DNA from: Psychromicrobium lacuslunae
Lineage (GTDB): Bacteria; Actinomycetota; Actinomycetes; Actinomycetales; Micrococcaceae
Direction: 5' to 3'
Length of the DNA stretch: 64,000 bases
Assembly (NCBI RefSeq): GCF_000950575.1
Contig: NZ_CP011005.1
Coordinates: forward strand, 2,976,001-3,040,000
Below, piece by piece: positions 6,815 through 26,316 of this stretch (positions are counted from its first letter, which is position 1; every line of letters begins with the position of its first letter). The position numbers and the translations under genes were made by a program. The notes below the pieces were generated by a model. The model saw nothing but the letters and a program-made list of their open reading frames with translations. It was not told the DNA's origin and did not search any database.

Positions 6815-6875
6815 ATCGAGTGTGCAGCTCTACACGATTTGAACGCCGTTTAACGTGTAGAGCTGCACACTCGAT
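6815..6875. repeat. Palindromic intergenic element, copy 1
   Basis: A perfect 22-bp inverted repeat (6815-6836 with 6854-6875) with a 17-nt AT-rich centre, core arm CGAGTGTGCAGCTCTACA. It lies between two convergent genes, 34 nt after the MMPL stop. No U-tract follows on either strand, so it is not a canonical Rho-independent terminator. One of six related copies in this window (8406, 15714, 17173, 20822, 26260). Confidence 0.9.
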
Positions 6876-6925
6876 AAGGAAGGGGGCGATGAGGAAGCGG
6901 GCGAGGAACTGGGAGCAATCCTTGC

Positions 6926-7375
6926 TTAGGCGCTCATATTTTCGGCGCCGACCATCCAGGAGTACTGCTCCAGCTTCTCAATAATCGCGTGCAGCAAATC
7001 TGCCGAGGTGGGGTCTTCGGCGTCGACCTCGTCGTGCACTCGGCGAGCCGTGGCTGCCGCGGCATCGAGCCGTTCCACCACCAGGTCAACGGCCTTGCCG
7101 GTATCGACCAGCCCCGACGGGAAAGCAGGCAATGCGGTACTAGCGGTAACTGTCGCCGTGCGGCCATCCGGCACCGCGTGCAGCGCTCGCATCCGCTCTG
7201 CAATGGTGTCGGAAAATTCCCGTGCGTCGGCGATGATCTCGTCGAGCTGCAAGTGCAGATCACGGAAGTTCTTGCCCACGATATTCCAGTGAGCCTGCTT
7301 GCCTTGGACATGAAGTTCGATCAGATCGACCAGAACTGACTGGAGATTTGCGCTGAGAGTTTCGGACGCTTTCAT
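6926..7375 (-). CDS. dps: Dps-family DNA-binding ferritin-like protein
   Basis: 149 residues, a normal length for Dps. The ferroxidase-type pattern is present: KQAHWNIVGKNFRDLHLQLDE followed by a DTIAERMRAL helix, as in the inter-subunit site of Dps dodecamers. Family role: binds and oxidises ferrous iron with peroxide and protects DNA in stationary phase. There is no long Lys-rich N-terminal tail, so direct DNA binding is uncertain. It has a good Shine-Dalgarno (GGAGGAAAAG) before the ATG and stands alone, with the BASS transporter 41 nt upstream on the same strand. Confidence 0.88.
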   Translation of the reverse strand: MKASETLSANLQSVLVDLIELHVQGKQAHWNIVGKNFRDLHLQLDEIIADAREFSDTIAERMRALHAVPDGRTATVTASTALPAFPSGLVDTGKAVDLVVERLDAAAATARRVHDEVDAEDPTSADLLHAIIEKLEQYSWMVGAENMSA

Positions 7376-7416
7376 AACTTTTCCTCCAAAAATGTAGGGG
7401 TTACTACTCTTCGAGC

Positions 7417-8388
7417 CTAGGCCGATGCTCCCTGAGCTTCAACCGAGGCTGGGCTTGGTTCGCTGGGTTCGGCCCGTCGAGCCATAAAAGCGGCAACAAT
7501 CGCTCCGGAGACGTTATGCCAGACCGAGAAGATCGCGGCGGGAAGTGCAGCGAGGGGTGAGAAGTGAGCTGTCGCCAGCGAGGAGGCTAGCCCGGAGTTC
7601 TGCATGCCGACCTCGAAGGCCAGCGCGCGGCGGGCGCGTACATCCAAGCCGCCCAGCTTTCCGGCTAGGTAGCCCAAGCCGAGGCCGAAAGCATTGTGTA
7701 GCACCACGGCGAGGAAGACCACCCCAGCGGCGCTGGCGATCTTGCTGGCGCTGCCAGCCACCACAATGGCGACAATAAAGGCGATCACCAGTGCGGAGAT
7801 CCAGGGCAGCGCCGGCAAAACTTTGGCCACCAGTTTCTTCAGGAAAAGTCGTACCAAGAGACCGGCAATGACCGGAATTAAGACGGTCTTGACGATGTCA
7901 AGCACCATTGCCCCGGCGTCGATATTGAGGAAGCTACCGGCCAGCAAGAGCACCAGGGCGGGCGTGACCAGCGGGGCGATCAGCGTTGAGACGGTGGCCA
8001 CCGCGACGGAGAGCGCGACATCGCCTTTCGCTAAGAAGGCCATTACATTCGAGGCGGTGCCGCTCGGCGCGCAACCCACCAGAATGACACCGGCCGCAAG
8101 AGCTGGGTCCAGGTGCAGAGCGACGGCGATCAGCCAACCAGCGCCCGGCATAATCACGTAGTGAGCCAGGATACCGAGACCAACCGCCCAGGGGCGACGC
8201 ACAACGGAGGCGAAATCGGGCGGAGTCAGGGTCAGCCCCATGCAGAACATAATCACGCCGAGCAAATACGGCACTGCTGGAGCCATTGGGGTGAAACCAC
8301 CGGGCCAGAGGAAACCCAGAATCCCGGCAGCAATCACCAGCAGCGGGAACACGGTAACAGCAACTTTGGCGCGACGTTCTTCGATCAC
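7417..8388 (-). CDS. Bile acid:sodium symporter (BASS) family transporter
   Basis: 323 residues, about ten hydrophobic segments. Two family signatures are visible: GCAPSGTASNVMAFLAKGD (sodium-site region) and EVGMQNSGLASSLA. Bacterial members of this branch carry organic anions such as pantoate or pyruvate-type acids; the substrate cannot be read from the sequence. Start at ATG 8388, 18 nt inside palindromic element 2. The C-terminal tail (RAEPSEPSPASVEAQ) is hydrophilic. Confidence 0.88.
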   Translation of the reverse strand: MIEERRAKVAVTVFPLLVIAAGILGFLWPGGFTPMAPAVPYLLGVIMFCMGLTLTPPDFASVVRRPWAVGLGILAHYVIMPGAGWLIAVALHLDPALAAGVILVGCAPSGTASNVMAFLAKGDVALSVAVATVSTLIAPLVTPALVLLLAGSFLNIDAGAMVLDIVKTVLIPVIAGLLVRLFLKKLVAKVLPALPWISALVIAFIVAIVVAGSASKIASAAGVVFLAVVLHNAFGLGLGYLAGKLGGLDVRARRALAFEVGMQNSGLASSLATAHFSPLAALPAAIFSVWHNVSGAIVAAFMARRAEPSEPSPASVEAQGASA

Positions 8389-8405
8389 TTTTCTATTCTT
8401 TCCGT

Positions 8406-8462
8406 CGAGTGTGCAGATCTACATGGTTTGAAGCTCTCAAAACGTGTAGATCTGCACACTCG
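8406..8462. repeat. Palindromic intergenic element, copy 2
   Basis: Inverted repeat with perfect 18-bp arms (CGAGTGTGCAGATCTACA at 8406-8423 and its complement at 8445-8462) and a 21-nt centre. It lies 25 nt downstream of the stop of the alarmone-synthetase-like gene (minus strand) and 17 nt upstream of the BASS start, so it forms the 3' end of the former. Confidence 0.9.
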
Positions 8463-8487
8463 GCCATGAGTCAATGGGTGGAGTTTG

Positions 8488-9591
8488 CTAGTTACCCCGG
8501 GACTTTCGATAACTGAGCATTTGCCGCCAGCGTCGTTGCAGGCTTTCTCGGCGACTGTTCCCGGCTTCGCCGGAAGCGGTGAGTTCAATGTGCACAGGAC
8601 CGTACCGCCAGAGCAAGAGATCATCCAGCAGCCGGTCGGGGCCGGGTGAATATCGATGGTCCAGCGCGGTCCGCACATCAATAATCGATTCGGACTGCAG
8701 CAAATCGGCCAGGTCGATGGTCTTGGTTAGCCCGTGCGCGGCCAATAGTTCAGCCGCCCAGCCCCAGTCGTCGTCGGACTTCCGATCCACGTGTGGCAGC
8801 AGCGTTACCCAGATCTCTTTAATCCGTTCCGGGGTGAGTGGTTGCTGGCCTTCTCCGTCCTCGTCCCAATAACTCGTCACCGTCTCGTATCGCTCGTGGA
8901 GCTCAGAGAATGCCGACTCAACGGCTTCCAACATGGCTGCGGTAGCGGTGAACTGTCGATCGAAGTAAGGGCTCCAAGCCCGCCGGTCCTCGGCCTTGAA
9001 ACGAATATCGTGCTCAATCTCGCTCCAAGCGTGGGCGAAAACGGTACGGATCTGACATTCGAAGAGGTAGCTACCGTTAGGCTTTACGGCACCCTCAAGC
9101 TGCTCCTGAAACTCGCGCACCACCGGATTTTGAATGCTGCGCAAAATCAAGTGCCGACTCGAATATCCATAAGTGCCGGACTCGATGGAGCCGATGTCCT
9201 TTTCCCGGTCCCCACGGCAGTCGAAGGTATGCCTCTGCCGCTTGATCAAATTGGCCGCCATGGCGTTTTCGCTGGGTAACGTGGTGATCACCCGGACGCC
9301 GACCAGATCGGTGAGGTTACGGAGCGGTTCGGGAAACTGCAGTACCGGTTCGCCGTCCGGCTCAGTGGCTTCAAGCATTCGGGAGGCCTTCTCTCGAAAG
9401 GACTCAACCGTTTTGGTCCGGCTGGAGACGAAGAGCGGTTTGGCTTCGGCCTCAGCGAAAATTTCCCGAATTCTGGTTTCCATTTCAGCGGTAACCAGTT
9501 TCAAAGCCGGCCTAATCCGGGCATACTCTGCCACGCTCGCGGCCACCGATGGGCGCAGGCGTTCATCGAGGCGTTCCCAATTGCTGGCCAT
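8488..9591 (-). CDS. RelA/SpoT-domain protein, putative small alarmone synthetase
   Basis: 367 residues. A RelA_SpoT nucleotidyltransferase domain occupies roughly residues 35-215: RNLTDLVGVRVITTLP (the Asp region), GYSSRHLILR in place of GYRSVHL, and FECQIRTVFAHAWSEIEHD, matching the QIRT...W..LEH motif. There is no HD hydrolase, TGS or ACT domain, so it would be a synthetase only, making (p)ppGpp or a related nucleotide. The C-terminal 150 residues are longer than in typical small synthetases and unassigned. It stands alone on the minus strand; its 3' end is palindromic element 2. Confidence 0.8.
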   Translation of the reverse strand: MASNWERLDERLRPSVAASVAEYARIRPALKLVTAEMETRIREIFAEAEAKPLFVSSRTKTVESFREKASRMLEATEPDGEPVLQFPEPLRNLTDLVGVRVITTLPSENAMAANLIKRQRHTFDCRGDREKDIGSIESGTYGYSSRHLILRSIQNPVVREFQEQLEGAVKPNGSYLFECQIRTVFAHAWSEIEHDIRFKAEDRRAWSPYFDRQFTATAAMLEAVESAFSELHERYETVTSYWDEDGEGQQPLTPERIKEIWVTLLPHVDRKSDDDWGWAAELLAAHGLTKTIDLADLLQSESIIDVRTALDHRYSPGPDRLLDDLLLWRYGPVHIELTASGEAGNSRRESLQRRWRQMLSYRKSRGN

Positions 9592-9686
9592 GGCATGAGC
9601 TTAACACCGTAGCCCCGGTAACCGAGATATCCAGCGGCAGAACCCCCTGCTCGGCTGATATAGAACTGATGTGAAACCATGGAAGG

Positions 9687-10421
9687 GTGAAGCCATTCCT
9701 GCTGATCTCTACCCGTGCCGAGGATGCTGCTGCCCTAGAGGAAGCGCAGGCTTTCGCGCGCTACACCGGTTTGAGTAAGCAATTGCTACATTGGCACCGA
9801 CTGGAAGCATCGCCGCTGCCGAAGGTTCGGCTAGCAGACTATTCGGGCATCATTCTGGGTGGTAGTCCGTTCAACTCCTCCGATCCATCCTCCTATAAAA
9901 GCCCAACCCAAAATCGGGTTGAAGCTGAACTGAGCTGGCTTTTGGATGAGGTAGTGGCGCTGGATTTCCCCTTTCTTGGTGCTTGTTACGGGGTGGGCAC
10001 GCTGGGTAAACACCAGGGCGCTGTGATTGATAAGAAGTTTGGCGAACCCATTGGGCCGGTTGAGATTGAATTGAGCGACGACGGAATGGCGGACCCACTG
10101 CTGAGCGGTCTGCCACGACGATTCCAAGCCTTCGTGGGGCATAAAGAGGCTTGTTCGGTTTTGCCGCCGGAGGCCACCTTGCTCGCTTCCTCAGAGAGCT
10201 GCCGAGTACAGATGTTTCGGGTCCGAAAGAACCTCTACGCAACTCAGTTCCATCCCGAACTAGACGTGGTGGGTTTGCTGACCCGGATCGATGTCTACCG
10301 GCATGCCGGATATTTCCCAGCCGAAGAATTCGAGCAAGTGAAGAATCGTGCGCTCGCCGCGAAGGTGCTCGAACCCGCTCGGATTTTACGGAATTTCGCT
10401 GAATATTACGGCCGGGAGTAG
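9687..10421 (+). CDS. Class I glutamine amidotransferase (GMP synthase-like)
   Basis: 244 residues forming a class I glutaminase domain. The nucleophile is the Cys of GACYGVGTLG (family GxCxG), with His and Glu in QFHPEL completing the triad. The GILGG-type oxyanion strand is present (GIILGGSPFN). There is no synthetase domain, so it is a free-standing GuaA-glutaminase-like protein as in YfeJ relatives; the amide acceptor is unknown. GTG start right after GGAAGG, with TATAGA at 9659-9664 as possible -10. The next gene follows after 9 nt. Confidence 0.85.
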   Translation: MKPFLLISTRAEDAAALEEAQAFARYTGLSKQLLHWHRLEASPLPKVRLADYSGIILGGSPFNSSDPSSYKSPTQNRVEAELSWLLDEVVALDFPFLGACYGVGTLGKHQGAVIDKKFGEPIGPVEIELSDDGMADPLLSGLPRRFQAFVGHKEACSVLPPEATLLASSESCRVQMFRVRKNLYATQFHPELDVVGLLTRIDVYRHAGYFPAEEFEQVKNRALAAKVLEPARILRNFAEYYGRE

Positions 10422-10430
10422 GGGGCGAGG

Positions 10431-11177
10431 ATGCGAACCATCAACTACGGGGATGATCCGAGTCAATACGGGGAGCTGAGCGTGCCCGCTCCGGAATCGG
10501 GCCGCCGGGCCGGTCTCGCGATAATCATCCACGGCGGCTACTGGCGCTCGCGCTATGGCGCTGAGCTGGGCCGGCCGCTGGCCGCAGACCTGGCCGCACA
10601 CGGCGTGACAAGCTGGAACTTGGAGTACCGTCGGGCCGGAAACGGTGGGGGCTGGCCGGAAACTTTTGAGGACGTGGCTGCCGGAATCGATATTTTGTGC
10701 GATCTCGAAGTGGATCTGTACAAAGTTGTTATTGTCGGCCATTCCGCCGGCGGTCATTTGGCCACTTGGGCTGCTGGCCGGGCGAAGCTGCCAGCCGGTG
10801 TTCCAGGGGCTGAGCCAAGGCTGCTGCCAGATGCGGTGGTGAGCCAATCAGGATTGCTTGACCTGGGGACGGCACGACAGCTTGGTCTGAGCGACGGCGC
10901 AGTGCTTAATTTTCTGGGTGGGCACCCTGATGATCCCCGCTATCATTGGGCCGATCCGATCCAGCAGGTACCGGTGCCAGCCAAGATTTGGGCGGTTTAC
11001 GGCGAGGCGGACGATACGGTTCCGGCCCAGCTTTCCAAGGACTACCTGGCGGCTGCCCGGGCGGCCGGGGGAGACGCTGAATTGGTGGCGGTGCCGGGGG
11101 ACCATTTCGCCTTGATCGATCCGACCACGGTGGCTTGGCGGAGCTGCCGGGAGTTGGTGCTGCGCGAATTGCTTTGA
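10431..11177 (+). CDS. Alpha/beta hydrolase, kynurenine formamidase-like
   Basis: 248 residues. IIHGGYW is the HGGxW oxyanion motif typical of esterase/kynurenine formamidase relatives, GHSAGGHLA holds the nucleophile serine, and GDHFALIDP the catalytic histidine; the acid is probably in GEADDTVPA. It is 9 nt downstream of the amidotransferase with GGGGGCGAGG as ribosome site, so the two are co-transcribed. No tryptophan-degradation partner is nearby, so the substrate is open. Confidence 0.85.
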   Translation: MRTINYGDDPSQYGELSVPAPESGRRAGLAIIIHGGYWRSRYGAELGRPLAADLAAHGVTSWNLEYRRAGNGGGWPETFEDVAAGIDILCDLEVDLYKVVIVGHSAGGHLATWAAGRAKLPAGVPGAEPRLLPDAVVSQSGLLDLGTARQLGLSDGAVLNFLGGHPDDPRYHWADPIQQVPVPAKIWAVYGEADDTVPAQLSKDYLAAARAAGGDAELVAVPGDHFALIDPTTVAWRSCRELVLRELL

Positions 11178-11198
11178 TGAGTAGGGCAGCTCGACCGC

Positions 11199-11283
11199 GG
11201 GACCCGGTCAACTGTGGGAGGCGGTCAACCGCGGGAACTGGCCAACTGTGGGAACTGGCCAACTGTGGGAACTGGCCAACTGT
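11199..11283. repeat. 17-bp tandem repeat, five units
   Basis: Five head-to-tail 17-bp units between the hydrolase and the VOC gene. Units 3-5 (11233-11283) are identical (GGGAACTGGCCAACTGT); units 1-2 (11199-11232) are diverged. The units contain TGGCCA and the run begins 22 nt after a stop codon. It is a small minisatellite, with no evident coding or protein-binding role. Confidence 0.85.
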
Positions 11284-11345
11284 GGCTTTGGGATCAGCGT
11301 GGACAATGCCTTGTCAGCTAACGGAAAGATTGATTTGCTAGAGGG

Positions 11346-11765
11346 ATGCTGGGGCTTAGCGGCGCTGGCATTCTGACTCAGGAGAAAATCATCACAGTTA
11401 GCTTTAATCACACCATTATTGCCGCCAAAGATCGGCACGAATCAGCTAAGTTCTATAGGGATATTTTTGGCCTCCCGGAGGCGCTCAGCTGGGGGCCGTT
11501 TATTAATATTCAGCTTGACGACGGGGTATTGCTGCAGTTCGCGGAACCGCCAGTTGAAATCCAGATGCAGCATTACGCTTTCCTGGTGGATGACGATCGC
11601 TTTGACCGGGCTTACACCTGGTTGCAAGAAAACGGCGTCGAGCATTGGGCTGACCCGCAGCGGCAGCGGCCGAATGAAACCAACACCGAGCACGGCGGCC
11701 GAGGGGTTTATTTTATGGACCCGGCGGGGCACGGGCTGGAGATCATCACTCGACCATATTTCTGA
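11346..11765 (+). CDS. VOC family (glyoxalase/bleomycin resistance-like) protein
   Basis: 139 residues with a single vicinal-oxygen-chelate repeat: FNHTIIAAKDRHESAKFYRDIFGL at the N-terminal half and GRGVYFMDPAGHGLEIITRPY at the end, giving the usual HxxxxxxD...E ligand set. Substrate unknown. The only canonical start in frame is ATG 11346; an apparent AGGAG at 11381-11385 sits too far inside the frame and has no ATG/GTG/TTG after it, so the first 15 residues may not be real. Confidence 0.78.
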   Translation: MLGLSGAGILTQEKIITVSFNHTIIAAKDRHESAKFYRDIFGLPEALSWGPFINIQLDDGVLLQFAEPPVEIQMQHYAFLVDDDRFDRAYTWLQENGVEHWADPQRQRPNETNTEHGGRGVYFMDPAGHGLEIITRPYF

Positions 11766-11790
11766 TCCGCGAGTTGATCGGCGCTGCGCT

Positions 11791-12288
11791 TCACCGTGTC
11801 GTTGATTCGTCAATCCGTGCCGGGACCTGTGCTCGGGCCGCCGCGAAGCGTTCCCGATAGGGGCGTTCTGTGAGGAGTTGGAGCACTTCATCAAGTGCTG
11901 TGCTCAGTGGGAAACTCATCTCGGACTCCAACTGTCTTGCCATGATCGCGGTGCTCCGCCATTCTTCGTCGAGCAAAGGCATCAGTTTCTTAGCGTCGTC
12001 GCTGAGCCGGATCAGTCGAGAACGGGCATCGCGACCCTGGCTGCTGAGCACCAGAGCATCTTTGAGCAGTGCAGCGACGGTTTGGCTCATCGCTGAATGA
12101 GTCACTCCGACGGCGGTCGCCAGTTCCCCGATGCTCTGCCCATCCTGGGCTTGCAAGGCTTGTAATACCGGGGTGTAGCGCAAACGGAATCCGGGGAGCC
12201 CCAGCTCTGCGTACACCTCGGCCAATCCTCCGTCGAGAGCATCCTGAACTTGCTTTAGACGGGTGCCAATCAAATCTACGGATTCCAT
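11791..12288 (-). CDS. MarR-family transcriptional regulator
   Basis: 165 residues. The winged helix reads SIGELATAVGVTHSAMSQTVAALL followed by SSQGRDARSRLIRLS, the MarR wing. The N-terminus (MESVDLIGTRLKQVQDALDGGLAEVY) is an amphipathic dimerisation helix. It is divergent from the prolyl iminopeptidase-like gene; both start codons lie inside one 38-bp palindrome, so the regulator very probably represses both genes. Confidence 0.87.
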   Translation of the reverse strand: MESVDLIGTRLKQVQDALDGGLAEVYAELGLPGFRLRYTPVLQALQAQDGQSIGELATAVGVTHSAMSQTVAALLKDALVLSSQGRDARSRLIRLSDDAKKLMPLLDEEWRSTAIMARQLESEMSFPLSTALDEVLQLLTERPYRERFAAARAQVPARIDESTTR

Positions 12289-12324
12289 TCTTAAAATATA
12301 ACAGTGCTGTTATATTTTAAGAAT
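12287..12324. promoter_or_regulatory. Perfect 38-bp palindrome: shared operator/promoter
   Basis: Arms of 18 bp (12287-12304 and 12307-12324) are perfectly complementary around a central TG; the core reads TATAACAGTGCTGTTATA. The outer bases overlap the start codons of both flanking genes (ATG ending at 12288 on minus, ATG at 12323 on plus). A -10-like TATATT lies 6 nt before each start by symmetry, so both mRNAs would be leaderless and both promoters covered by one bound dimer. Confidence 0.8.
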
Positions 12325-13285
12325 GATTGAGCGTTTTGCACCGATAGAGCCCTACCGTAGTGGAATGCTCGACGTGGGTGATGGCCAGCTGATGTATTGG
12401 GAGGAGAGCGGTAATCCGGAAGGCTTGCCGGTGCTTGTGCTGCATGGTGGTCCTGGTTCGGGTACCACGCCGGGTGGCCGACGGAACTGGGATCCAGCTC
12501 GTTATCGGATCATCCAACTTGACCAGCGCAATTGCGGGCGGAGTACGCCCTCGGCAAGCGACCCAACAACTGATCTTGCGCTGAACACCACGCACTATCT
12601 GATCGCGGATATTGAATCTTTGCGGCAGTTTTTAAGAGTGGATCGCTGGGTGCTCTGGGGAGGCTCTTGGGGAGTCACTCTGGCGCTGGCCTATGCCCAA
12701 AAGCATCCGGAGCGGGTGGTGGCGATGATCCTCATCTCTGTGACGATGACCAGGCGCAGTGACGTGCATTGGCTCTACCACGAGACCGGGCGCTACCTAC
12801 CGGAGCAGTGGCAGCGCTTTCGCGACGGTGTTCCGGAAGCCGAACGGGAAGGTGATCTGGTTGCTGCGTACAACCGGTTGCTCAATGAATCGGACGATCT
12901 CGGTGTGCGGCGTGAGGCGGCGCAGCGCTGGTGCGATTGGGAGGACGCCGCTCTCTCGCTAGAGCCTGGTTGGAAACCTTCAGAACGCTTTCAAGACGAA
13001 GATTTCAGACTGCAGTTCGCCCGAATCGTCAGTCATTATTTCCATCACGGTGCTTGGCTTGAAGAAGGCCAACTGCTCCGTGAGATCGACCGACTGCGCG
13101 GCATTCCAGCGGTCCTCATCCACGGTCAGCATGATCTGGGCAGCCCGGTCGACGTGCCCTGGCTATTGGCCCAGTCTTGGCCGGAAGCAGAACTGCACAT
13201 CGTTAAGGAAGCCGGGCACAGCGGGAGCGAGAAGTCCGGCCAGCTCATTCTGCAGGCAGCTGAAAAGTTTAGTCAGTTGAGCTAA
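12323..13285 (+). CDS. pip: Prolyl iminopeptidase-like alpha/beta hydrolase
   Basis: 320 residues of the S33 family. HGGPGSG is the oxyanion loop and GGSWGVTLALAYAQ carries the catalytic serine (GGSWG is the prolyl iminopeptidase signature). HGQHDLGSP provides the acid and EAGHSGSE the histidine. It would release N-terminal proline from peptides in the cytoplasm. Leaderless-type start inside the shared palindrome; probably controlled by the divergent MarR. Confidence 0.9.
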   Translation: MIERFAPIEPYRSGMLDVGDGQLMYWEESGNPEGLPVLVLHGGPGSGTTPGGRRNWDPARYRIIQLDQRNCGRSTPSASDPTTDLALNTTHYLIADIESLRQFLRVDRWVLWGGSWGVTLALAYAQKHPERVVAMILISVTMTRRSDVHWLYHETGRYLPEQWQRFRDGVPEAEREGDLVAAYNRLLNESDDLGVRREAAQRWCDWEDAALSLEPGWKPSERFQDEDFRLQFARIVSHYFHHGAWLEEGQLLREIDRLRGIPAVLIHGQHDLGSPVDVPWLLAQSWPEAELHIVKEAGHSGSEKSGQLILQAAEKFSQLS

Positions 13286-13300
13286 TCTCCGCTTTCTAGT

Positions 13301-15059: not shown

Positions 15060-15150
15060 TCTGAAAAGTAGGTGCCTTGAGCAGCACCTGGCTTGAATTG
15101 TGCTCGGCCTCAGCAGAAAAGTACCCCGGAAGAGAAGTCGAAAGGCGAAA

Positions 15151-15684: not shown

Positions 15685-15713
15685 ATCTAAAAAACCCGGT
15701 GCCGTCCACGTAT

Positions 15714-15770
15714 CGAGTGTGCAGATCTACATCTTAAGACCGATCGAAAAGATGTAGATCTGCACACTCG
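15714..15770. repeat. Palindromic intergenic element, copy 3
   Basis: Perfect 22-bp inverted repeat (15714-15735 with 15749-15770), 13-nt centre, arm starting CGAGTGTGCAGATCTACA. It sits between two genes on the plus strand, 29 nt after the PEBP stop and 55 nt before the MFS start. The closest copy to the family consensus. Confidence 0.92.
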
Positions 15771-15825
15771 GCGAGGGTTTGAGCGGCAAGGAGGGGGGGG
15801 AGCGCCCCCGAGCTAAGGAGTCGGC

Positions 15826-17172: not shown

Positions 17173-17235
17173 CGCCGAGTGTGCAGATCTGCAGGTTTTG
17201 AGCCGGTTTTTAGATGTAGATCTACACACTCGGCG
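17173..17235. repeat. Palindromic intergenic element, copy 4
   Basis: Inverted repeat with 21-bp arms (17173-17193 and 17215-17235) with two mismatched positions, one of which is a G-U pair in RNA; 21-nt centre with TTTTGAG. It lies 15 nt after the MFS stop and 67 nt before the HAD gene. Confidence 0.88.
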
Positions 17236-18109: not shown

Positions 18110-18138
18110 GTATCCACGCTGCTTGATACGCTAGCCGC

Positions 18139-19559: not shown

Positions 19560-19676
19560 AGATCTTGCTGTCCGTTGCGTGGTTTTCGGGCGCTTCACCA
19601 CTGCTCAGTAGCGAAGATTACCGCACATAGAAGCTGCGGCATCGGCTTTCCTTGGTCGGAATGGCAGGATGGAGAG

Positions 19677-20801
19677 ATGCGTGTTTTGATAGCCCCGGAT
19701 AAGTTCAAAGGAACCCTGAGCGCGGCCCAAGCCGCGGCCGCAATAGCCGAGGGCGCGCTGAGGATTTACCCGGAGGCCGTGACGACCGTGCTGCCGATGG
19801 CTGATGGCGGCGAGGGCACTGTTGAGGCGGCTGTGGCGGCAGGTTTTGAGGAACGCTTGAACGCCGTGGTTGGACCGATTCTGCGGCCGACCGGCGCGGT
19901 CTGGGCGGTCAATGGTGTTAGCGCGGTAATTGAGACGGCGCAAGCAAGCGGTTATCTTCTCGCCGAACCGAGTCCGGAAAATGCGCTGCGGGCTCACAGC
20001 TATGGTTGTGGGCAGTTGATTGCCGCTGCGCTCGACGCCGGGGCCAGCGAAATAGTTTTGGGCCTGGGTGGCTCGGCAATGACCGATGGCGGCACCGGGG
20101 CGTTGCGTGCCCTGGGCTTGAAACTGCTTGATCAACACGGCGCCTTCGTGCCCTTGGGTGGTGGCTCTTTGGCCGAAGTGGTCGCGATTGACGCCAGTGG
20201 CTTAGACCAGCGGTTGGCCACGGTGAAGTTCCGGATTGCCGTAGACGTAGACAACCCGCTCTATGGTCCGCTCGGAGCCGCCCAGGTATTTGCTCCGCAA
20301 AAAGGTGCTGACGCGGATGGTGTCGAGCTTTTGGACGCTGGTCTGCGCAATCTAGCCTCGCTGCTGAGGGAGTCTTTCGGGGTGGACGTGGATGTTCCCG
20401 GAGCCGGTGCAGCGGGCGGCTTCCCGGCATCCTTCCTCGCATTAGCTGGTTCGGGGCTTGCCGAGGTGACGATCGAATCGGGTGTGGAATTGGTCGCAGA
20501 GTTGCTGGGGCTACGGGAGAAGATCGCCGAAGCCGATTTGGTGATTACGGGCGAGGGCAGCGTGGACGAACAGTCGCTAGCCGGAAAGACCCCGATCGGG
20601 GTGGCCCGGGCCGCGCAGGCGCTCGGCGTGCCGGTGGTTTTGGTCGCCGGGCAGTTGAGCGTCGGGCTCGACGTTTTGGGTGAATTAGGAGTGGTGGCCG
20701 CCGCCTCCGCGGCGGAGAGCGCGCGCAGCGAAGAGCTGGCGATGTCAGAGCCGGAGCGCTACCTCCGCCAAGCCACCGAAAACGCCCTCAACGGCATCTA
20801 A
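19677..20801 (+). CDS. glxK: Glycerate kinase (GlxK/GarK type)
   Basis: 374 residues. MRVLIAPDKFKGTLSAAQAA is the diagnostic N-terminus; PMADGGEGT and LGLGGSAMTDGGTGALRALG are the glycine-rich substrate motifs, and VITGEGSVDEQSLAGKTP the C-terminal signature. Converts D-glycerate to 2-phosphoglycerate with ATP. The frame opens earlier (19575), but ATG 19677 after AGGATGGAGAG matches the family's start. Palindromic element 5 begins 20 nt after the stop. Confidence 0.92.
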   Translation: MRVLIAPDKFKGTLSAAQAAAAIAEGALRIYPEAVTTVLPMADGGEGTVEAAVAAGFEERLNAVVGPILRPTGAVWAVNGVSAVIETAQASGYLLAEPSPENALRAHSYGCGQLIAAALDAGASEIVLGLGGSAMTDGGTGALRALGLKLLDQHGAFVPLGGGSLAEVVAIDASGLDQRLATVKFRIAVDVDNPLYGPLGAAQVFAPQKGADADGVELLDAGLRNLASLLRESFGVDVDVPGAGAAGGFPASFLALAGSGLAEVTIESGVELVAELLGLREKIAEADLVITGEGSVDEQSLAGKTPIGVARAAQALGVPVVLVAGQLSVGLDVLGELGVVAAASAAESARSEELAMSEPERYLRQATENALNGI

Positions 20802-20821
20802 GCCACCACCCGGTTTCGCGC

Positions 20822-20878
20822 TGAGTGTGCAGCTCTACATCTTAAAGACGTCTCAAAACGTGTAGATCTGCACACTCG
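20822..20878. repeat. Palindromic intergenic element, copy 5
   Basis: Inverted repeat with 18-bp arms (20822-20839 and 20861-20878), one mismatch and one wobble, 21-nt centre containing CTTTAAGA on the reverse. Lies between the convergent glycerate kinase and uracil permease genes. Its centre is in the opposite orientation to copies 1, 4 and 6. Confidence 0.88.
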
Positions 20879-20918
20879 AGGGCGGAAATGGGCCGATCCG
20901 ATGGTGGAAGTCGGCAGC

Positions 20919-22208
20919 TTAGGCTGGCGGCGTTGAACCGGTGCGGAGCCTGAGTAGGCCACGCATACCGTGGTAGATCAAGAGCGCCGCCGCGGTGCCG
21001 AGCGCGATACCAGCGAACTGCAGCTCGTTACCGCCCACCGACAGCGTCCAGGTGTAGTCGGCGATGCCAATGATCAGCGCAACGGCGGCCGTGGTCAGGT
21101 TTACCGGGTTACCGAAGTCGACCTTGTTCTGCACCCAGATCCGTACCCCGAGCACCCCGATCATGCCGTACAGCATAGTAGCGGCACCGCCCAGCACGCC
21201 GGGCGGTACGGTGGCGATCAGGGCACCAAACTTCGGCGAGAAGCTCAGCAGCAGCGCGGCAATTGCGGCCACCCAATAAGCCGCCGTCGAATAGACCTTG
21301 GTCGCCGCCATGACACCAATGTTCTCGGCATAAGTAGTAGTGCCGGACCCGCCGCCGAAACCGGCTAGCGTGGTGGCCAGCCCATCGGCCATCAGCGCGC
21401 GGCCGGCCAGTGGATCGAGGTCTTCCTTGGTCATCAGGGCCACCGATTTCACGTGGCCGATATTCTCAGCCACCAGCACCAAGACCACCGGGATGAAAAG
21501 CCCGGCCACCGCAAGGTTGAAGGTTGGGGTTTGGAATTGTGGCAGGCCAATCCAGGCTTGCTTATCGATTGCCGAAAAGTCGACCTGACCTTGCAGGATG
21601 GCTACGAGATAGCCGACCACGACGCCGACCAGAATCGAAAGTCGCCCCAGAATGCCGCGGAAGAGTACCGACACCAGAATGATCACCAGCAAGGTGATCA
21701 GCGCGGTGAGCGGTGCCTTATCAAAATTGCTCTTAGCCGAGGGGGCAAGGTTGAGGCCAATTAGGGCCACGATGGTGCCGGTCACCGCCGGTGGCATCAA
21801 ACGGTTGATCCAACTGGCACCAAAGCGTTGCACTACCAAGCCAATCAGGAATAGCACGACGCCGGCCATCACCACGCCACCCAACGCTCCGGCCACGCCG
21901 TACTGAGCCTGGGAGGCCATGATTGGGGCGATAAAGGCGAAGCTGGAACCCAGGTAACTGGGAATCCGACCGGCGGTCAACAGCAGGAACACAATGGTGC
22001 CGATGCCGGAGAAAAACAGCGTGGTGGCTGGCGGCATTCCGGTCAGGATCGGCACCAGGAAGGTGGCGCCGAACATCGCCACCACGTGCTGCAAGCCGAT
22101 GCCAATGGTGCGCGGCCAGCTCAGCCGCTCGTTGGGTGCAACCACTTCACCAGGGGTGATGGTCTTACCGTTGCCGTGAATACTCCAACGAACTCCGACG
22201 TTGCTCAT
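20919..22208 (-). CDS. uraA: Uracil-xanthine permease (NCS2 family)
   Basis: 429 residues, about 14 TM segments. Family motifs: GLQHVVAMFGATFLVPI in TM1, and FGGGSGTTTYAENIGVMAATKV, the NCS2 substrate-site signature of the UraA branch. Imports uracil by proton symport. A first ATG lies at 22223 inside the Shine-Dalgarno; I chose ATG 22208, 8 nt after GGAGG. Monocistronic. Confidence 0.92.
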   Translation of the reverse strand: MSNVGVRWSIHGNGKTITPGEVVAPNERLSWPRTIGIGLQHVVAMFGATFLVPILTGMPPATTLFFSGIGTIVFLLLTAGRIPSYLGSSFAFIAPIMASQAQYGVAGALGGVVMAGVVLFLIGLVVQRFGASWINRLMPPAVTGTIVALIGLNLAPSAKSNFDKAPLTALITLLVIILVSVLFRGILGRLSILVGVVVGYLVAILQGQVDFSAIDKQAWIGLPQFQTPTFNLAVAGLFIPVVLVLVAENIGHVKSVALMTKEDLDPLAGRALMADGLATTLAGFGGGSGTTTYAENIGVMAATKVYSTAAYWVAAIAALLLSFSPKFGALIATVPPGVLGGAATMLYGMIGVLGVRIWVQNKVDFGNPVNLTTAAVALIIGIADYTWTLSVGGNELQFAGIALGTAAALLIYHGMRGLLRLRTGSTPPA

Positions 22209-22350
22209 CGCCGTTTCCTCCATCTCGGGCTTAGCCGTTGAACCTGCTCTGTGCTCAAGGGGCTCAGCTAAGAGTATCGGCTGCTGCTGCTTCGGGTAGT
22301 CTGCGAGATATCAGCATTAAGCCGAGTCTAAAAACCCAAGGAGCTAGAAG

Positions 22351-22707
22351 ATGTCCGGAGCGCTGTTTAGCAACACTCGAACCGGTCCGGCGGGGCTGGT
22401 TTTTATTTCCGGACAAGTGCCGGTTGACGACGCCGGGGAGCTGGTAACCGGCGGCATGACCGAGCAGGCCAACGCGGTCTTTGATCGGCTTGCAGACCGG
22501 CTAGCAGAGCACGGCGGAACGCTTGAGCAGATAGTGAAAATCACCTATTTTTTGACCGATCTGGCCCAGCTTGAGGAATTTCGGCAGGTGCTGCGAAGCC
22601 GCTTAACCGACCCTAAACCGGCGGCCAGCTTAGTCGAAGTCTCTGCCTTGGTGCGTCCGGAATTTTTGCTGGAGATTGAGGCGATCGCGGTGGTTCCCGA
22701 GTCTTAG
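22351..22707 (+). CDS. RidA family protein
   Basis: 118 residues, normal for the YjgF/YER057c/RidA trimer. Landmarks: GLVFISGQVPVDDAGELV, a TEQANAVFDRL helix, VKITYFLTDL and PAASLVEVSALVRPEFLLEIEAIAV. The usual Arg of the active cleft appears in VRPEFLLEIE. RidA deaminates reactive enamine/imine intermediates. AAGGAG precedes the ATG. It sits next to, but convergent with, the GntR regulator. Confidence 0.88.
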   Translation: MSGALFSNTRTGPAGLVFISGQVPVDDAGELVTGGMTEQANAVFDRLADRLAEHGGTLEQIVKITYFLTDLAQLEEFRQVLRSRLTDPKPAASLVEVSALVRPEFLLEIEAIAVVPES

Positions 22708-22732
22708 TCGAGGCCAGACCGTAGCGGCTCAG

Positions 22733-23419
22733 CTAGTCCAAGCCGAGTGCGCCATACAGCTGCTCTCTACTGTCGTCGAGATAGACTCGCATGAGTTCAG
22801 CCGCCCGGCCGGGCTGCCCCGCCAACAGCGTCTCAACGATCAGTCGGTTCCGCGAAATATAGGGCTCTAAAAACGCCCGAGCATCGGCCATGCTGTGGAA
22901 GGCTAGCCGGACTTCGGCCATGAGTTGCCGGGAGGTTTCGGAGATTCGATTGCTGCCGACACTTTCCATCAGAGCCTGATGGAAAGCGAGATTGTCGGTG
23001 GCTACCTCGGTCCAGTCGCCACGAAGAGCCGCACTCTCGGCCCGCTCCACCGCCTGCAACGCCTGCTGCAGCTGAGGATGATCAGCGGGACATTGGGCAA
23101 CCGCTGATACTTCCAAGAACATTCGGGCCGAATAGACCTCGAGCACATCAACCCGGCCCAGCCGCCGAACAAAGACGCCACGGTGCAGCTCGTGATTGAT
23201 CAGCCGTTCGTGGGCCAGTAACCGAAACGCTTCACGCAGTGAGTTCCTGGAGACCTGAAGGGACTCGGCGAGCGCCTCTTCAGCCAATTGGGTGCCGGGA
23301 GGTAAATCGCCCTCAAAAATGCGCTGCTTGAGTACCGCAGCGATCATCTCTCCGGTGCCACTGCGCCGAATATCAGGGCGTTTACGGGCAAATAGCTCGG
23401 TGAAATCAACCTCGGGCAT
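22733..23419 (-). CDS. GntR-family regulator (FadR subfamily, FCD domain)
   Basis: 228 residues. N-terminal winged helix: LKQRIFEGDLPPGTQLAEEALAESLQVSRNSLREAFRLL; C-terminal FCD all-helical ligand domain with the metal-site Asp/His pattern (NLAFHQALMESVGSNRI, YISRNRLIVETL). An upstream in-frame ATG (23446) exists, but ATG 23419 has GGAGG 5-9 nt before it. It is divergent from the DUF969-DUF979-DUF2891 operon and is its likely local regulator; ligand probably a small organic acid (family inference). Confidence 0.88.
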   Translation of the reverse strand: MPEVDFTELFARKRPDIRRSGTGEMIAAVLKQRIFEGDLPPGTQLAEEALAESLQVSRNSLREAFRLLAHERLINHELHRGVFVRRLGRVDVLEVYSARMFLEVSAVAQCPADHPQLQQALQAVERAESAALRGDWTEVATDNLAFHQALMESVGSNRISETSRQLMAEVRLAFHSMADARAFLEPYISRNRLIVETLLAGQPGRAAELMRVYLDDSREQLYGALGLD

Positions 23420-23473
23420 CGCTCCCTCCTTCCACGTTTGCTTCACTGTATCGCAAATTAATTGATTGAAGGA

Positions 23474-23504
23474 TTGTTCAACAACATGTAGTGTGAATCA
23501 CACT
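23474..23504. promoter_or_regulatory. Candidate GntR operators
   Basis: Two small palindromes in the divergent region: TTGTT-C-AACAA (23474-23484) and AGTGTG-AAT-CACACT (23490-23504). The second is a perfect 6-bp-arm dyad, the size range used by FadR-type regulators, and lies just upstream of the GGAGG (23516-23520) serving the DUF969 gene. Assignment is by position only. Confidence 0.5.
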
Positions 23505-23539
23505 TGCGTCCCTTGGGAGGAAATTGCTGTGGATCAATC

Positions 23540-24253
23540 ATGTTCGTGCTGATCGGTGTCGCGCTCGTCATCGTCGGCTTCGCGCTCCGACTCAATGCTC
23601 TCTTGGTGGTGGCCGTCTCCGGCATTGTCACCGCGTTGATCGGTGGGCTCAGCCCGCTGGATATTCTCAACGCGCTGGGCTCCGGTTTCACCAGCGGCAG
23701 ATCGGTGACCATTTTCGTCATCTTGCTGCCGGTGATCGGTCTAATCGAGCGATTCGGACTTCAGCAACAGGCGAAGCGATTGATCGGTAAGCTCGCTAAG
23801 CTCACCGCTGGGCGGATCATCTTCCTCTATCTAGCCATCCGGCAGATCACCATTGCACTGGGACTGCCGATCGGCGGACATCCACAGATGGTGCGGCCGC
23901 TGATCTACCCGATGGCCGAGGGTGCGGCTGAGGCGAAATACGGCAACCTCTCCGAGAAAACCAAAGACAAGATCAAGGGTCACGCCGCAGGTGCGGACAA
24001 TGTTGGAAACTTCTTCGCCGAGGACGTCTTCGTTGCGGTTGGCTCCATCCTGCTGATCACCTCCTTTGTTGACGCGCAATACAAACTGCAATTGGAACCC
24101 ATCCAGCTCGCGCTCTGGGCCATTCCGACGGCGATTATCGCCTTCCTGGTGCACGGCTTCCGGCTGCTTAGACTGGACGGCCAACTTGATCGCTTGGTGA
24201 AGTCCGATGCCGCCATCGGAAGCGTGGCAACCGAAAGCGGGGCGAGCAAATGA
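23540..24253 (+). CDS. DUF969 family membrane protein
   Basis: 237 residues, about five to six TM segments. Recognisable DUF969 stretches: MFVLIGVALVIVGFALRLN, GLPIGGHPQMVRPLIYPMAE and HAAGADNVGNFFAEDVFVAVG. It always travels with DUF979; together they look like a two-part transporter. The frame extends to a TTG at 23504; ATG 23540 matches the family start but the GGAGG is about 20 nt upstream, so the exact start is uncertain. The downstream gene overlaps by 4 nt (ATGA). Confidence 0.85.
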   Translation: MFVLIGVALVIVGFALRLNALLVVAVSGIVTALIGGLSPLDILNALGSGFTSGRSVTIFVILLPVIGLIERFGLQQQAKRLIGKLAKLTAGRIIFLYLAIRQITIALGLPIGGHPQMVRPLIYPMAEGAAEAKYGNLSEKTKDKIKGHAAGADNVGNFFAEDVFVAVGSILLITSFVDAQYKLQLEPIQLALWAIPTAIIAFLVHGFRLLRLDGQLDRLVKSDAAIGSVATESGASK

Positions 24254-25227
24254 TTAACTCAGAGCCGGTTTACTGGCTGATTGGCCTGGTCTTCCTGGTC
24301 TTTGGCGTGCTGATTTTCGCTGATAAGACCAACCCCAAGCGCTACACCTCCGGAGCCTTCTGGTCGCTCATTGGCGCCAGCTTTATTTATGGCACCTGGG
24401 TGGCAGTCAATGCGGTTCCGCCGTGGACGCTGGGCATCGTGGTGCTAGCCATCGTCATCTTAGGTTCCACACCGAAGCTGCTTTTTGCCGGAACTACCCA
24501 AACCACAACCACCGAACAGCGTGAAGCCGGCGCGATCAAATACGGTAATAAACTCTTCATTCCGGCGCTGCTGATTCCGTTGGTCACCATTGCCGTCACG
24601 ATCGCCGCACCCTACCTCACGGTCGCCGGAAAACCGCTGTTGGCCACCGGTAGCGCCACCCTGATTGGCCTCGGCCTGGGAGCGGTGATTGCCGTCGTGG
24701 TCGGCCTGATTCTGCTTCGCCCGGTCCGCCCGGTGACCTCGGTGTATGAAGGCAAGCGACTGTTGGAGACCATCGGTTGGGCGGCGATTTTGCCGCAAAT
24801 GCTTTCGGTTTTGGGCATCCTGTTCACCCAAGCCGGCGTGGGCACAGCGGTAGGCAGCATTATGAAGTCGATTGTGCCGCCGGGAGTATTGATCTTTGCG
24901 GTGATCGCTTACTGCGTGGGGATGGCGCTATTCACCATTCTGATGGGCAACGCCTTCGCCGCGTTCCCCATCATGACCGCGGCCATTGGCTGGCCGCTGC
25001 TGGTCCAGGGCTTCGACGGCAACCCGGCGGTAATCTTCGCAGTCGGTATGCTGGCTGGGTTCTGTGGCACCCTGTGCACGCCGATGGCGGCAAACTTCAA
25101 TATCGTCCCGGCCGCGCTATTGGAGATGAAAAATAAGTACGGCGTGATCACCGCGCAACTACCCACCGCTGGCATTATCTTGGTGGCCAATATTGCGATC
25201 ATGTACTTCTTCGGTTTCCCCAAATAG
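24250..25227 (+). CDS. DUF979 family membrane protein
   Basis: 325 residues, nine or so TM segments; NAFAAFPIMTAAIGWPLLVQ, GFCGTLCTPMAANFNIVPAALLEM and QLPTAGIILVANIAIMYFFG resemble helices of ion-coupled carboxylate/peptide permeases. Partner of the DUF969 protein, translationally coupled to it. Reported neighbourhoods often include peptidases, so an amino-acid or peptide-derived substrate is plausible (recollection, not shown here). Function not established. Confidence 0.85.
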   Translation: MINSEPVYWLIGLVFLVFGVLIFADKTNPKRYTSGAFWSLIGASFIYGTWVAVNAVPPWTLGIVVLAIVILGSTPKLLFAGTTQTTTTEQREAGAIKYGNKLFIPALLIPLVTIAVTIAAPYLTVAGKPLLATGSATLIGLGLGAVIAVVVGLILLRPVRPVTSVYEGKRLLETIGWAAILPQMLSVLGILFTQAGVGTAVGSIMKSIVPPGVLIFAVIAYCVGMALFTILMGNAFAAFPIMTAAIGWPLLVQGFDGNPAVIFAVGMLAGFCGTLCTPMAANFNIVPAALLEMKNKYGVITAQLPTAGIILVANIAIMYFFGFPK

Positions 25228-25248
25228 GCCAGCAAAGAGGAGCGAACA

Positions 25249-26232
25249 ATGAACATTCCAGCCAGCCACGAATTAGCGCCGGTCTACGCAGCAATAGTGC
25301 TTGAGAACCTCTCACAGAGTCATCCCTACCACTTGGTACATATGCTGCGTTCGACTGCGGATCTGCGCTCACCAGCGGAGCTCTATCCGGCCTTCCATAC
25401 CTCCTATGACTGGCATTCCTGTGTGCATATGCACTGGCTCGGGGTTGAACTGCTGCGCTCAGGTCTGGAGTCTGCACCATTGCGGGCGCGTTTGAACGAG
25501 AACCTGACCGAGTCAAAGCTCGAGGTCGAAGCGGCGTACCTCCGAGCCAATTCGATTTTTGAGCGGCCCTATGGTTGGGCCTGGGCGGCCCGGCTGGCGG
25601 CTTCCAGCGAGGCCTTCGGGCGGCAGGGAGACGCCGATGCGCAGCGCTGGAGTAGCGCGCTAGCGCCGCTGACAGAGGCGGTTTTTGGCAATGCCACGCG
25701 GTGGGCCGCAGCGATTAATCACCCGGTGCGGCACGGTGTGCATTCGAACACTGCCTTCGGCCTGAGTCTGCTTTTGACGGCGGCCGAGCAGCTGGGCAGA
25801 ACTGAGGACGCGTCAATGCTCAAGCAAGCGGCATTACGACTATTTGCCGCCGATCAGAATTGGGCTGGCCGTTGGGAGCTGAGCGGTCAAGACTTCCTTT
25901 CCGCGGGGCTAGCCGAGGCGGATTTGCTCTCCCGGGTGCTGCCGGAGACTGAGTTCGCCTCGTGGTTCGCGGCCTTCCTGCCGGAGCCAGCCGACGTCGT
26001 TCAACCAGCCGTGGTGACCGATAAGACGGACGCCCAAATGGTACACCTCGACGGCTTGAATCTCTCCCGGGCGGGGGCGCTGTTCAGAATCTCTACTGCC
26101 TTGCAAGACGCCGGGCTCCGGGAAAGCGCCGAGACCCTGCTGGCCGCCGGCCTGAGCGCTGTTGAAACCGATGAATTCGTCTCCTCGCACTGGCTAGCCT
26201 CATTTGCCTGGGATGCCCTGCTAAGTCGCTGA
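25249..26232 (+). CDS. DUF2891 family protein
   Basis: 327 residues, soluble, all-helical composition. Signature: LYPAFHTSYDWHSCVHMHWLGVELLR (DWHSxVHxHW) near residue 55, and HPVRHGVHSNTAFGLSLLL around residue 160, with His/Asp/Glu residues that could form an active site like alpha/alpha-toroid enzymes. It follows the DUF979 gene after 21 nt with GAGGAG before the ATG, making a three-gene operon. The enzyme activity is unknown; context suggests it processes the transported compound. Confidence 0.82.
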   Translation: MNIPASHELAPVYAAIVLENLSQSHPYHLVHMLRSTADLRSPAELYPAFHTSYDWHSCVHMHWLGVELLRSGLESAPLRARLNENLTESKLEVEAAYLRANSIFERPYGWAWAARLAASSEAFGRQGDADAQRWSSALAPLTEAVFGNATRWAAAINHPVRHGVHSNTAFGLSLLLTAAEQLGRTEDASMLKQAALRLFAADQNWAGRWELSGQDFLSAGLAEADLLSRVLPETEFASWFAAFLPEPADVVQPAVVTDKTDAQMVHLDGLNLSRAGALFRISTALQDAGLRESAETLLAAGLSAVETDEFVSSHWLASFAWDALLSR

Positions 26233-26259
26233 GGTTCTTCTCGGGTGCTGACGCCCCGT

Positions 26260-26316
26260 CGAGTGTGCAGCTTTCCACGTTTTGAGCGGGTTTTAAGATG
26301 TAGATCTGCACACTCG
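26260..26316. repeat. Palindromic intergenic element, copy 6 (decayed left arm)
   Basis: Arms 26260-26277 and 26299-26316. The right arm matches consensus exactly; the left arm differs at three positions (CTTTCCA for ATCTACA). The centre TTTTGAGCGGGTTTTAAGA matches the orientation of copies 1 and 4. Located between the convergent DUF2891 and arsR genes, 27 nt after the DUF2891 stop. Confidence 0.85.

What the first reader, a model, noticed from the sequence alone, without database searches (positions are those of the whole stretch)
6815..26316. Six-copy family of palindromic elements restricted to gene 3' ends
Copies at 6815, 8406, 15714, 17173, 20822 and 26260 share the arm CGAGTGTGCAGATCTACA and its complement around a 13-21 nt centre with a TTTTGAG/TTAAGA core. 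Every copy starts 15-35 nt after a stop codon; three lie between convergent genes and three in tandem gaps. None is in a gene and none has a U-tract. I found none after 26.3 kb. This looks like an uncatalogued REP/MITE-like family or a terminator/mRNA-end stem-loop spread by copying. Covarying changes (ATCT to GCTC) keep some arms paired, arguing for selection on structure.
Basis: partly seen in the sequence, partly recalled or inferred. Interest (0 to 1): 0.82.

Follow-up and report, generated by a model that had tools for sequence, protein, structure and literature searches.

The report
Palindromic repeats with a nuclease partner
Short palindromes scattered after the ends of genes in this bacterium share their arm sequence with two copies that bracket the gene of a nuclease-like protein, and the same pairing of protein and palindromes, each with its own arm sequence, turns up across actinobacteria, which points to an undescribed kind of self-spreading repeat system.

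Summary
The six window copies (two 21-bp arms, 21-nt centre) belong to at least 71 in this 3.6-Mb genome, in three arm 'dialects', mostly just after stop codons. No RAYT (Y1_Tnp) is found in the genome. Instead one gene, for a 318-aa protein with an AbiEi-like front and a DUF559/MTES_1575 (PD-(D/E)XK-like) end, is bracketed by two copies of the window's dialect. It and its orthologues lie between the same two genes in five species of the genus; beside each lie palindromes with that species' own arms (in one species on one side only), and scattered copies match them. Across Actinomycetes 30 of 83 homologue loci have palindromes on both sides, against 1 of 197 control ORFs from Micrococcaceae; the two sides usually share an arm, different genes do not. 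Arm and protein divergence correlate (n=25, Mantel p 0.0006). In another genus seven copies are nearly identical including the centre, so copies spread. I read this as a REP/RAYT-like two-part system built on an unrelated nuclease-type protein. The pairing is well supported; binding, cutting and copying are inferred. No paper linking the two was found in the open-access library searched.

The parts
6814..6876 (.). palindromic element copy 1 (dialect A with CTCT/AGAG arms), convergent gap
   Evidence: genome C1:2982814
8403..8465 (.). palindromic element copy 2 (dialect A), tandem gap, 22 nt behind the stop of the minus-strand gene ending at 8488
   Evidence: an element with other arms (GAGTGTGGAG) sits at the same boundary in P. 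silvestre
15711..15773 (.). palindromic element copy 3 (dialect A), tandem gap
17173..17235 (.). palindromic element copy 4 (dialect A, imperfect arms), tandem gap
20819..20881 (.). palindromic element copy 5 (dialect A, imperfect arms), convergent gap
   Evidence: elements at the same boundary in P. silvestre and in G006, each with its own arms (the G006 match is supported on one side)
26257..26319 (.). palindromic element copy 6 (dialect A, imperfect left arm), convergent gap
   Evidence: the same boundary in P. silvestre has a 49-nt gap without an element

Best explanation
The copies are the dispersed half of a two-part system. The other half is a single gene (G000 C1:2530400-2531356, outside the window) for a protein with an AbiEi-like N-terminal region and a C-terminal DUF559/MTES_1575-type, PD-(D/E)XK-like nuclease domain, itself bracketed by two copies. 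SHOWN by sequence: protein and palindromes occur together; the two palindromes of one gene share arms while different lineages of the protein have different arms; in five species of the genus the scattered copies carry arms like those beside the orthologous gene; copies have spread recently in at least one related genus. INFERRED: the AbiEi-like part binds the two arms (as double-stranded DNA or as an extruded hairpin); the nuclease part cuts at or near the conserved base (GAGTG/CACTC in this genus); break repair or replication then copies the element into, or keeps it at, tolerated places just behind stop codons; when the protein's specificity drifts, the arms at all sites follow, while the 21-nt centre, a spacer or loop, is free to vary. 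It works like REP/RAYT but with an unrelated enzyme.
For: (1) Copies 2530364 and 2531432 bracket the gene, and the gene's 3' end overlaps the first. (2) The gene and its orthologues lie between the same MFS and dcd genes (Pfam) in five species (L220, L221, L222, L224, L225). The palindromes beside them have arms that differ by species and resemble that species' scattered copies: by nearest type 34 of 68 comparable copies in this genome (A), 46 of 46 in P. silvestre, 28 of 30 in G006; three palindromes in 263 kb of G003; three loci and three palindromes in 60 kb of G002. (3) Both sides: 13 of 29 homologue loci from eight Micrococcaceae genomes (three more, L221, L222 and L232, have a second copy below the cut), 10 of 29 order-wide, 7 of 25 class-wide; together 30 of 83 against 1 of 197 control ORFs, Fisher 4e-17. 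In 51 of the 54 order and class loci, 46 palindromes in 27.5 kb near the gene ends against 3 in 101 kb further off. (4) Arms of the two sides agree: 13 genes, median 15 of 17 against a mode of 9 of 17 between genes; 17 genes, 13-15 of 15 against a mode of 8 of 15 between genes, 14-15 in 4 of 272. (5) Protein and arm identity correlate, n=25, Mantel p 0.0006; p 0.009 without L220 and L222. (6) Independent named cases: of three near-full-length homologues on Arthrobacter megaplasmids the standard scan finds both sides in one, one side in one, none in one; a relaxed scan finds imperfect palindromes on both sides of the latter two, with arms alike on the two sides. The ERGS1:01 arm occurs 25 times on its 754-kb plasmid, six of them beside the gene, reversed control 0. 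(7) Domains: PADLOC AbiEi E 1e-6 in the own protein; MTES_1575 in 12 of 14 members (best E 1e-6) and DUF559 in 10 of 14 (best E 3e-4). (8) Copying: seven G014 places within 0-4 differences of one 64-mer including the centre, left flanks unrelated.
Against: No binding, cutting or movement has been shown. In the own protein all Pfam matches are below the curated cut-off. The fold prediction from one sequence failed (pLDDT 37). 7 of 29 loci, 14 of 29 and 9 of 25 show no palindrome at the cut used, so many homologues may lack the partner, carry decayed palindromes, or belong to another branch. 34 of 197 control ORFs have a palindrome on one side, so one-sided cases count for little. In G002 the palindrome on one side of the orthologue does not carry the dialect arm as a normal element. 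Dialects B and C in this genome have no close protein of their own. Positions are conserved between species (25 reciprocal pairs), which looks more like old, kept sites than an active mobile element; 12 of 31 G006 elements had a G005 locus in hand and all 12 are shared (loci chosen because they carry elements). Centres of positional pairs are closer than chance only for G000-P. silvestre (p 0.0006; 0.026 within orientation class), not for the two comparisons with G006 (p 0.82 and 0.997), so descent at each site is not proven and re-insertion at favoured sites is not excluded.
Confidence: 0.74

Rival explanations
1. The palindromes are operators of an AbiEi-like DNA-binding regulator: the protein represses its own gene through flanking inverted repeats and binds the scattered sites as a regulon or DNA-architecture network, with no copying.
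For: The N-terminal part resembles AbiEi. AbiEi antitoxins are reported to bind inverted repeats and so regulate their own operon (PMC7319586, start of abstract seen). Positions are conserved across species while arms change together, as binding sites would that follow a changing regulator.
Against: Sites lie behind genes rather than in promoters (62 of 70 downstream of at least one gene); palindromes flank the gene on both sides; a nuclease-type domain is fused to it; near-identical copies with unrelated left flanks show copying in G014.
Confidence: 0.14
2. Ordinary bidirectional terminators or mRNA 3'-end hairpins that happen to be alike.
For: Placement a median of 18 nt behind stop codons and excess in convergent gaps; strong hairpins.
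Against: Terminators need no shared 17-nt arm sequence, no species dialect, no fixed 21-nt spacing and no link to one protein family. At least 71 copies only, and no U-tract directly after any window copy by reading.
Confidence: 0.08
3. Members of the known REP/RAYT (REPIN) superfamily.
For: Palindromes bracketing a partner gene, dispersed copies in 3' intergenic gaps, species-specific stems: the organisation described for GTAG REPs and RAYTs (PMC3733652, abstract and passages).
Against: No Y1_Tnp protein in this genome; elements of about 63 nt with 21-bp arms against stems of 5-13 bp; no unpaired GTAG tag; the partner protein is of another family.
Confidence: 0.02
4. MITEs moved by the transposase of an ordinary insertion sequence.
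For: Palindromic, dispersed, copy number differs between species.
Against: The arms recur beside the AbiEi/nuclease gene in lineage after lineage. Target duplications could not be judged, the empty sites being too diverged. I did not search for IS transposases bearing these arms.
Confidence: 0.02

Closest known systems
REP/BIME repeats and RAYT transposases (GTAG REPs, REPINs)
   Same: Dispersed extragenic palindromes mostly downstream of genes, stems specific to a lineage, a partner gene bracketed by the same palindromes.
   Different: Partner is AbiEi-like plus a PD-(D/E)XK-like domain instead of an HUH tyrosine transposase; element about 63 nt with 21-bp arms and a fixed 21-nt centre; constant paired base GAGTG/CACTC in this genus instead of an unpaired GTAG. 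In the passages I saw, the 2013 survey lists no actinobacterial phylum for tagged REPs but mentions untagged REP-like repeats in M. tuberculosis (PMC3733652).
REPs called by RepRanger
   Same: That tool reports large REP numbers in Arthrobacter livingstonensis, a Micrococcaceae species (one table passage seen, PMC12306157), so some repeats of this kind may already be listed there as REPs.
   Different: The word RAYT does not occur in its main text; I saw nothing of a partner protein, and did not compare its repeats with these.
CGTC-tagged REPs
   Same: Palindromes with CGTC at one end (many copies here read CGTC before GAGTG); the paper says they lack a dedicated transposase.
   Different: CGTC REPs have 8-9 bp stems and 4-5 nt loops and were found in five other phyla (PMC3733652); here CGTC pairs with GACG at the other end and the arms are 21 bp.
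AbiEi antitoxins of type IV toxin-antitoxin systems
   Same: N-terminal region scores as AbiEi; AbiEi is reported to bind inverted repeats (PMC7319586, start of abstract).
   Different: Fused to a nuclease-type domain; the neighbours are an MFS transporter and dcd, no AbiEii toxin; palindromes on both sides and dispersed.
DUF559 / REase_MTES_1575 / Vsr-like nucleases, including stand-alone homing endonucleases of that fold
   Same: C-terminal domain; weak profile match to PDB 3hrl, E 0.05. The homing and Vsr parallels are recalled, not tested.
   Different: Known homing enzymes of this fold sit in introns or phage genes (recalled); no paper linking the domain with dispersed palindromes appeared in the listings.

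Membership tests
REP/RAYT | cognate HUH tyrosine transposase (Y1_Tnp, PF01797) in the genome | tested here: not met
   0 matches in G000; 1 of 7 genomes of the genus matches, in two pieces
REP/RAYT | short stem (5-13 bp) with unpaired GTAG tag | tested here: not met
   21-bp arms, paired base CRYCGAGTG/CACTCGRYG
REP/RAYT | partner gene bracketed by the same palindromes | tested here: met
   met in organisation, with an unrelated protein
REP/RAYT | extragenic, mostly downstream of genes, dispersed | tested here: met
   62 of 70 copies downstream of at least one gene; 1 further copy inside a crude ORF call
CGTC REP | 8-9 bp stem, 4-5 nt loop, unpaired CGTC at one end | tested here: not met
   against the description in PMC3733652
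intrinsic terminator | GC-rich hairpin followed by a U-tract | tested here: not met
MITE | terminal repeats shared with a transposase gene | not tested
   IS transposases of the genome were not searched for these arms; the arms were found beside the AbiEi/nuclease gene instead
MITE | target-site duplication | tested here: inconclusive
   empty sites in P. silvestre and G006 too diverged to read
type IV AbiE toxin-antitoxin | AbiEi next to an AbiEii nucleotidyltransferase toxin | tested here: not met
   the genes on either side are an MFS transporter and dcd (Pfam), and the same two flank the four orthologues
DUF559/MTES_1575 nuclease | profile match and conserved catalytic residues | tested here: inconclusive
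   12 of 14 members match MTES_1575 at E<=0.1, best 1e-6; own protein below gathering; invariant columns D238, Y250, G252, H255, D264, R267, their catalytic role recalled by analogy; activity untested

The most novel reading that the evidence does not exclude
An order-to-class-wide class of selfish or domesticated palindromic repeats in Actinomycetes, mobilised by a fused AbiEi-like/PD-(D/E)XK nuclease rather than by any transposase. Each lineage has a private arm 'dialect' that co-evolves with its nuclease, so that dozens of dispersed sites change their arms in concert at conserved gene boundaries.
Probability: 0.55. Interest if true: 0.95.

Novelty: categorically new. Interest (0 to 1): 0.9.

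Why it matters
It would be a second, independent solution to the REP/RAYT problem, with a restriction-type nuclease in place of a transposase, and would give a function to a widespread actinobacterial protein family (match in 117 of 149 genomes of the order at E<=1e-15, and in 56 of 98 of the class at E<=1e-20; genomes drawn evenly from larger groups). The matched protein and arm variants are ready-made specificity pairs for testing how such a nuclease reads and copies its site, and the concerted change of arms at conserved sites is a directly testable case of molecular co-evolution.

Tried and rejected
RAYT search: no match in the own genome. Rfam over the window: no match at the gathering cut. 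Exact pattern in viral contigs: none; no viral relative of the protein confirmed; one weak partial match in phage records and a partial one in a Nonomuraea record without a palindrome beside it. Fold of the P. silvestre protein from one sequence: pLDDT 37, not used. I first took all copies for one family; the covariance model showed three dialects. Model R1 gave zero in G003, which proved to have a dialect that it could not see, so low counts from R1 elsewhere are not absence. R1 scored only 150 first-look candidates per genome, so 71 and 50 are lower bounds. Centre similarity as proof of descent works for one species pair only. NCBIfam: no family for 14 members. PDB by sequence: weak matches only.

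Rows dropped: one search used 29 of the 30 loci (L242, an N-terminal piece belonging with L230, was left out, and the L230 end was set to include it); two of the 32 matches have no locus. One search used 29 of 30 loci (the own gene was left out, being); L280 was first scanned at a wrong position and still has no palindrome at the right one. One search left out L280, L299 and L310 (51 of 54). One search left out three G000-P. silvestre pairs with shifted frames (22 of 25) and copies of unequal length. one-way pairs (four) were not counted. One search is superseded. One search used 25 loci whose arms I could read, one side each, of the 61 examined by then. The control comes from the window and 20-kb stretches of G001, G002, G003 and G014 only. 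Palindromes were sought with one home-made score; no whole-family tree was built.
Full report
THE OBSERVATION. The arm CGAGTGTGCAGATCTACA occurs 12 times in the window, always as an inverted pair, at the six places given (0.04 expected). Aligned, all six have arms 21 nt apart. A pattern search found 33 such places in the own genome, G000, with up to 3 mismatches, reversed control 0. A covariance model of 38 copies (34 from this genome, 4 from a relative) found 71 places (listed). They fall into three arm types with the same geometry: A GAGTGTGCAGATCTACA (window), B GAGTTCGGAGATCTGCA, C GAGTGTCGAGATCTGGG. Three copies have a centre of 20 or 22 nt instead of 21. Within a type, arms differ by 6-10% between copies and centres by 28-43% even in the better orientation.

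PLACEMENT. With a simple codon-usage gene caller trained on the window, 34 of 71 copies lie in tandem gaps, 28 in convergent gaps, 8 in divergent gaps and 1 inside a crude ORF call. Convergent gaps are over-represented (28 of 70, p 1e-6, against 9 of 57 gaps in the window). In tandem gaps 28 of 34 are nearer the upstream stop; the median distance behind a stop is 18 nt.

RELATIVES. P. silvestre has at least 50 copies; all 46 comparable ones are nearest to GAGTGTGGAGATCTGCA. For G006, 31 were listed and taken; 28 of 30 comparable ones are nearest to GAGTGGCCAGATCTGCA. G003, with none by the model, has its own type GAGTGGTCGG or close to it, found by a de novo palindrome scan of 263 kb. By flanking DNA, 25 reciprocal pairs of elements sit at the same gene boundary in G000 and P. 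silvestre (of 71 and 50; 18 supported on both sides), 12 in G000 and G006 (6 on both sides) and 9 in P. silvestre and G006 (3 on both sides), each time with different arms. Boundaries without an element exist too. Centres of G000-P. silvestre pairs are closer than permuted pairs (22 pairs, 8.55 against 10.14 differences, p 0.0006; 0.026 within orientation class); the pairs with G006 are not (p 0.82 and 0.997).

THE PARTNER GENE. Two copies 1.07 kb apart bracket one gene in this genome, and two elements bracket its orthologue in P. silvestre and G006. The 318-aa product matches AbiEi in its N-terminal half (PADLOC, E 1e-6) and DUF559/MTES_1575 in its C-terminal part: sub-threshold in the own protein, but MTES_1575 in 12 of 14 family members (best E 1e-6) and DUF559 in 10 of 14 (best E 3e-4). 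A profile of five such proteins found homologues in 8 of 8 genomes searched. Of 29 loci, 13 have palindromes on both sides and 9 on one at the cut used; the control is 1 and 34 of 197 ORFs. Three more loci have a second copy below the cut (L221, L222, L232). The two palindromes of one gene share their arm (13 genes, median 15 of 17); those of different genes mostly do not. The gene and four orthologues lie between the same MFS and dcd genes. Beside each lie arms like those of the species' own scattered copies; in G002 this holds for one side only, the other palindrome being of another make.

BREADTH. A 14-member profile matched 117 of 149 genomes of the order and 56 of 98 of the class, drawn evenly from larger groups. 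Of 29 and 25 loci, the best-scoring ones held, 10 and 7 have palindromes on both sides, 5 and 9 on one, 14 and 9 on none. In the 17 two-sided cases left and right arms agree in 13-15 of 15 positions; between genes the mode is 8 and 14-15 occurs in 4 of 272 comparisons. In 51 of the 54 loci palindromes are 56 times denser within 250 nt of the gene ends than 450-1440 nt away. Three near-full-length homologues on Arthrobacter megaplasmids were found by protein search. The standard scan finds both palindromes in one, one in another and none in the third; a relaxed scan finds imperfect ones on both sides of the latter two, against 22 and 11 relaxed palindromes in the whole 8.9-kb loci. The arm of the ERGS1:01 gene recurs 25 times on its plasmid, six beside the gene, reversed control 0; the other two plasmids, whose arms differ, have none. 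Protein and arm identities correlate over 25 loci (Spearman 0.26, Mantel p 0.0006; 0.19 and p 0.009 without L220 and L222). The arms were picked by eye from the outputs, one side each.

SPREAD BY COPYING. In G014, another genus of the family, seven places lie within 0-4 differences of one 64-nt element including the centre, with unrelated left flanks and a short similar stretch on the right. Two of them bracket the gene in L232 in opposite orientation. This is the best evidence of recent copying. In the window's own genome the copies look older.

READING. The pairing of palindrome and protein is the firm result. That the protein binds the arms and cuts DNA follows from domain resemblance and co-divergence only. 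A selfish or domesticated system like REP/RAYT is my preferred reading; a regulator with dispersed operators is the strongest rival. The constant base GAGTG/CACTC beside variable arms suggests a common processing site plus a specificity region, by analogy with the GTAG tag of REPs (PMC3733652, abstract and passages). I call it categorically new because enzyme and element both differ from REP/RAYT, while the organisation is alike.

PRINT. Listings for DUF559 with palindromes (two unrelated papers), AbiEi/Vsr/palindromic repeats, RAYT/REPIN with endonuclease or Actinobacteria, MTES_1575, AbiEi with inverted repeats, palindromic repeats with homing endonuclease or RAYT, and Renibacterium or Arthrobacter with palindromes showed no paper describing the pairing. 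Several of these searches listed only the top 6-15 of many. I judged from titles and abstract starts, except PMC3733652 (outline, abstract, passages) and one passage of PMC12306157, which reports REP counts for an Arthrobacter. The library is open access only.

Noticed in passing
L250:3836-3960 (NZ_CP012477.1): Three direct repeats of one palindrome arm (TGAGGGCCCAGATAATCCGC, 31 nt apart) upstream of the ERGS1:01 homologue.
   Followed up: no
L109:986 and L144:2079 (P. silvestre): Two elements share almost the whole 63-mer and at least 60 nt of right flank, so they look like parts of a larger duplicated unit.
   Followed up: no
L132:4070-6169 (Renibacterium sp. RGIG571): A 2.1-kb stretch next to an element is absent from the sister genome G006 and ends about 20 nt before the element; its ORFs look like a dioxygenase and an HD-domain protein by eye.
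   Followed up: partly
G014 copies in L038, L042, L048, L052, L214, L232: A similar half-palindrome (like TCGAGTGTGCAC) follows the 64-mer in all seven copies seen, suggesting a composite (BIME-like) unit.
   Followed up: no
G002:C1:910569-911479, G006:C1:499449-500375, G014:C18 and C3 loci: Several homologues are broken by stops or split into pieces, as expected of a gene in turnover.
   Followed up: no
window:12286-12325: A perfect 19-bp AT-rich inverted repeat with a 2-nt centre just before the ORF starting at 12323.
   Followed up: no
G000:C1:1043002 (L234) and G004:C1:602818 (L237): A second, distant homologue in each species has palindromes sharing TCTCGG.TTCGC, possibly another co-diverging pair.
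   Followed up: partly
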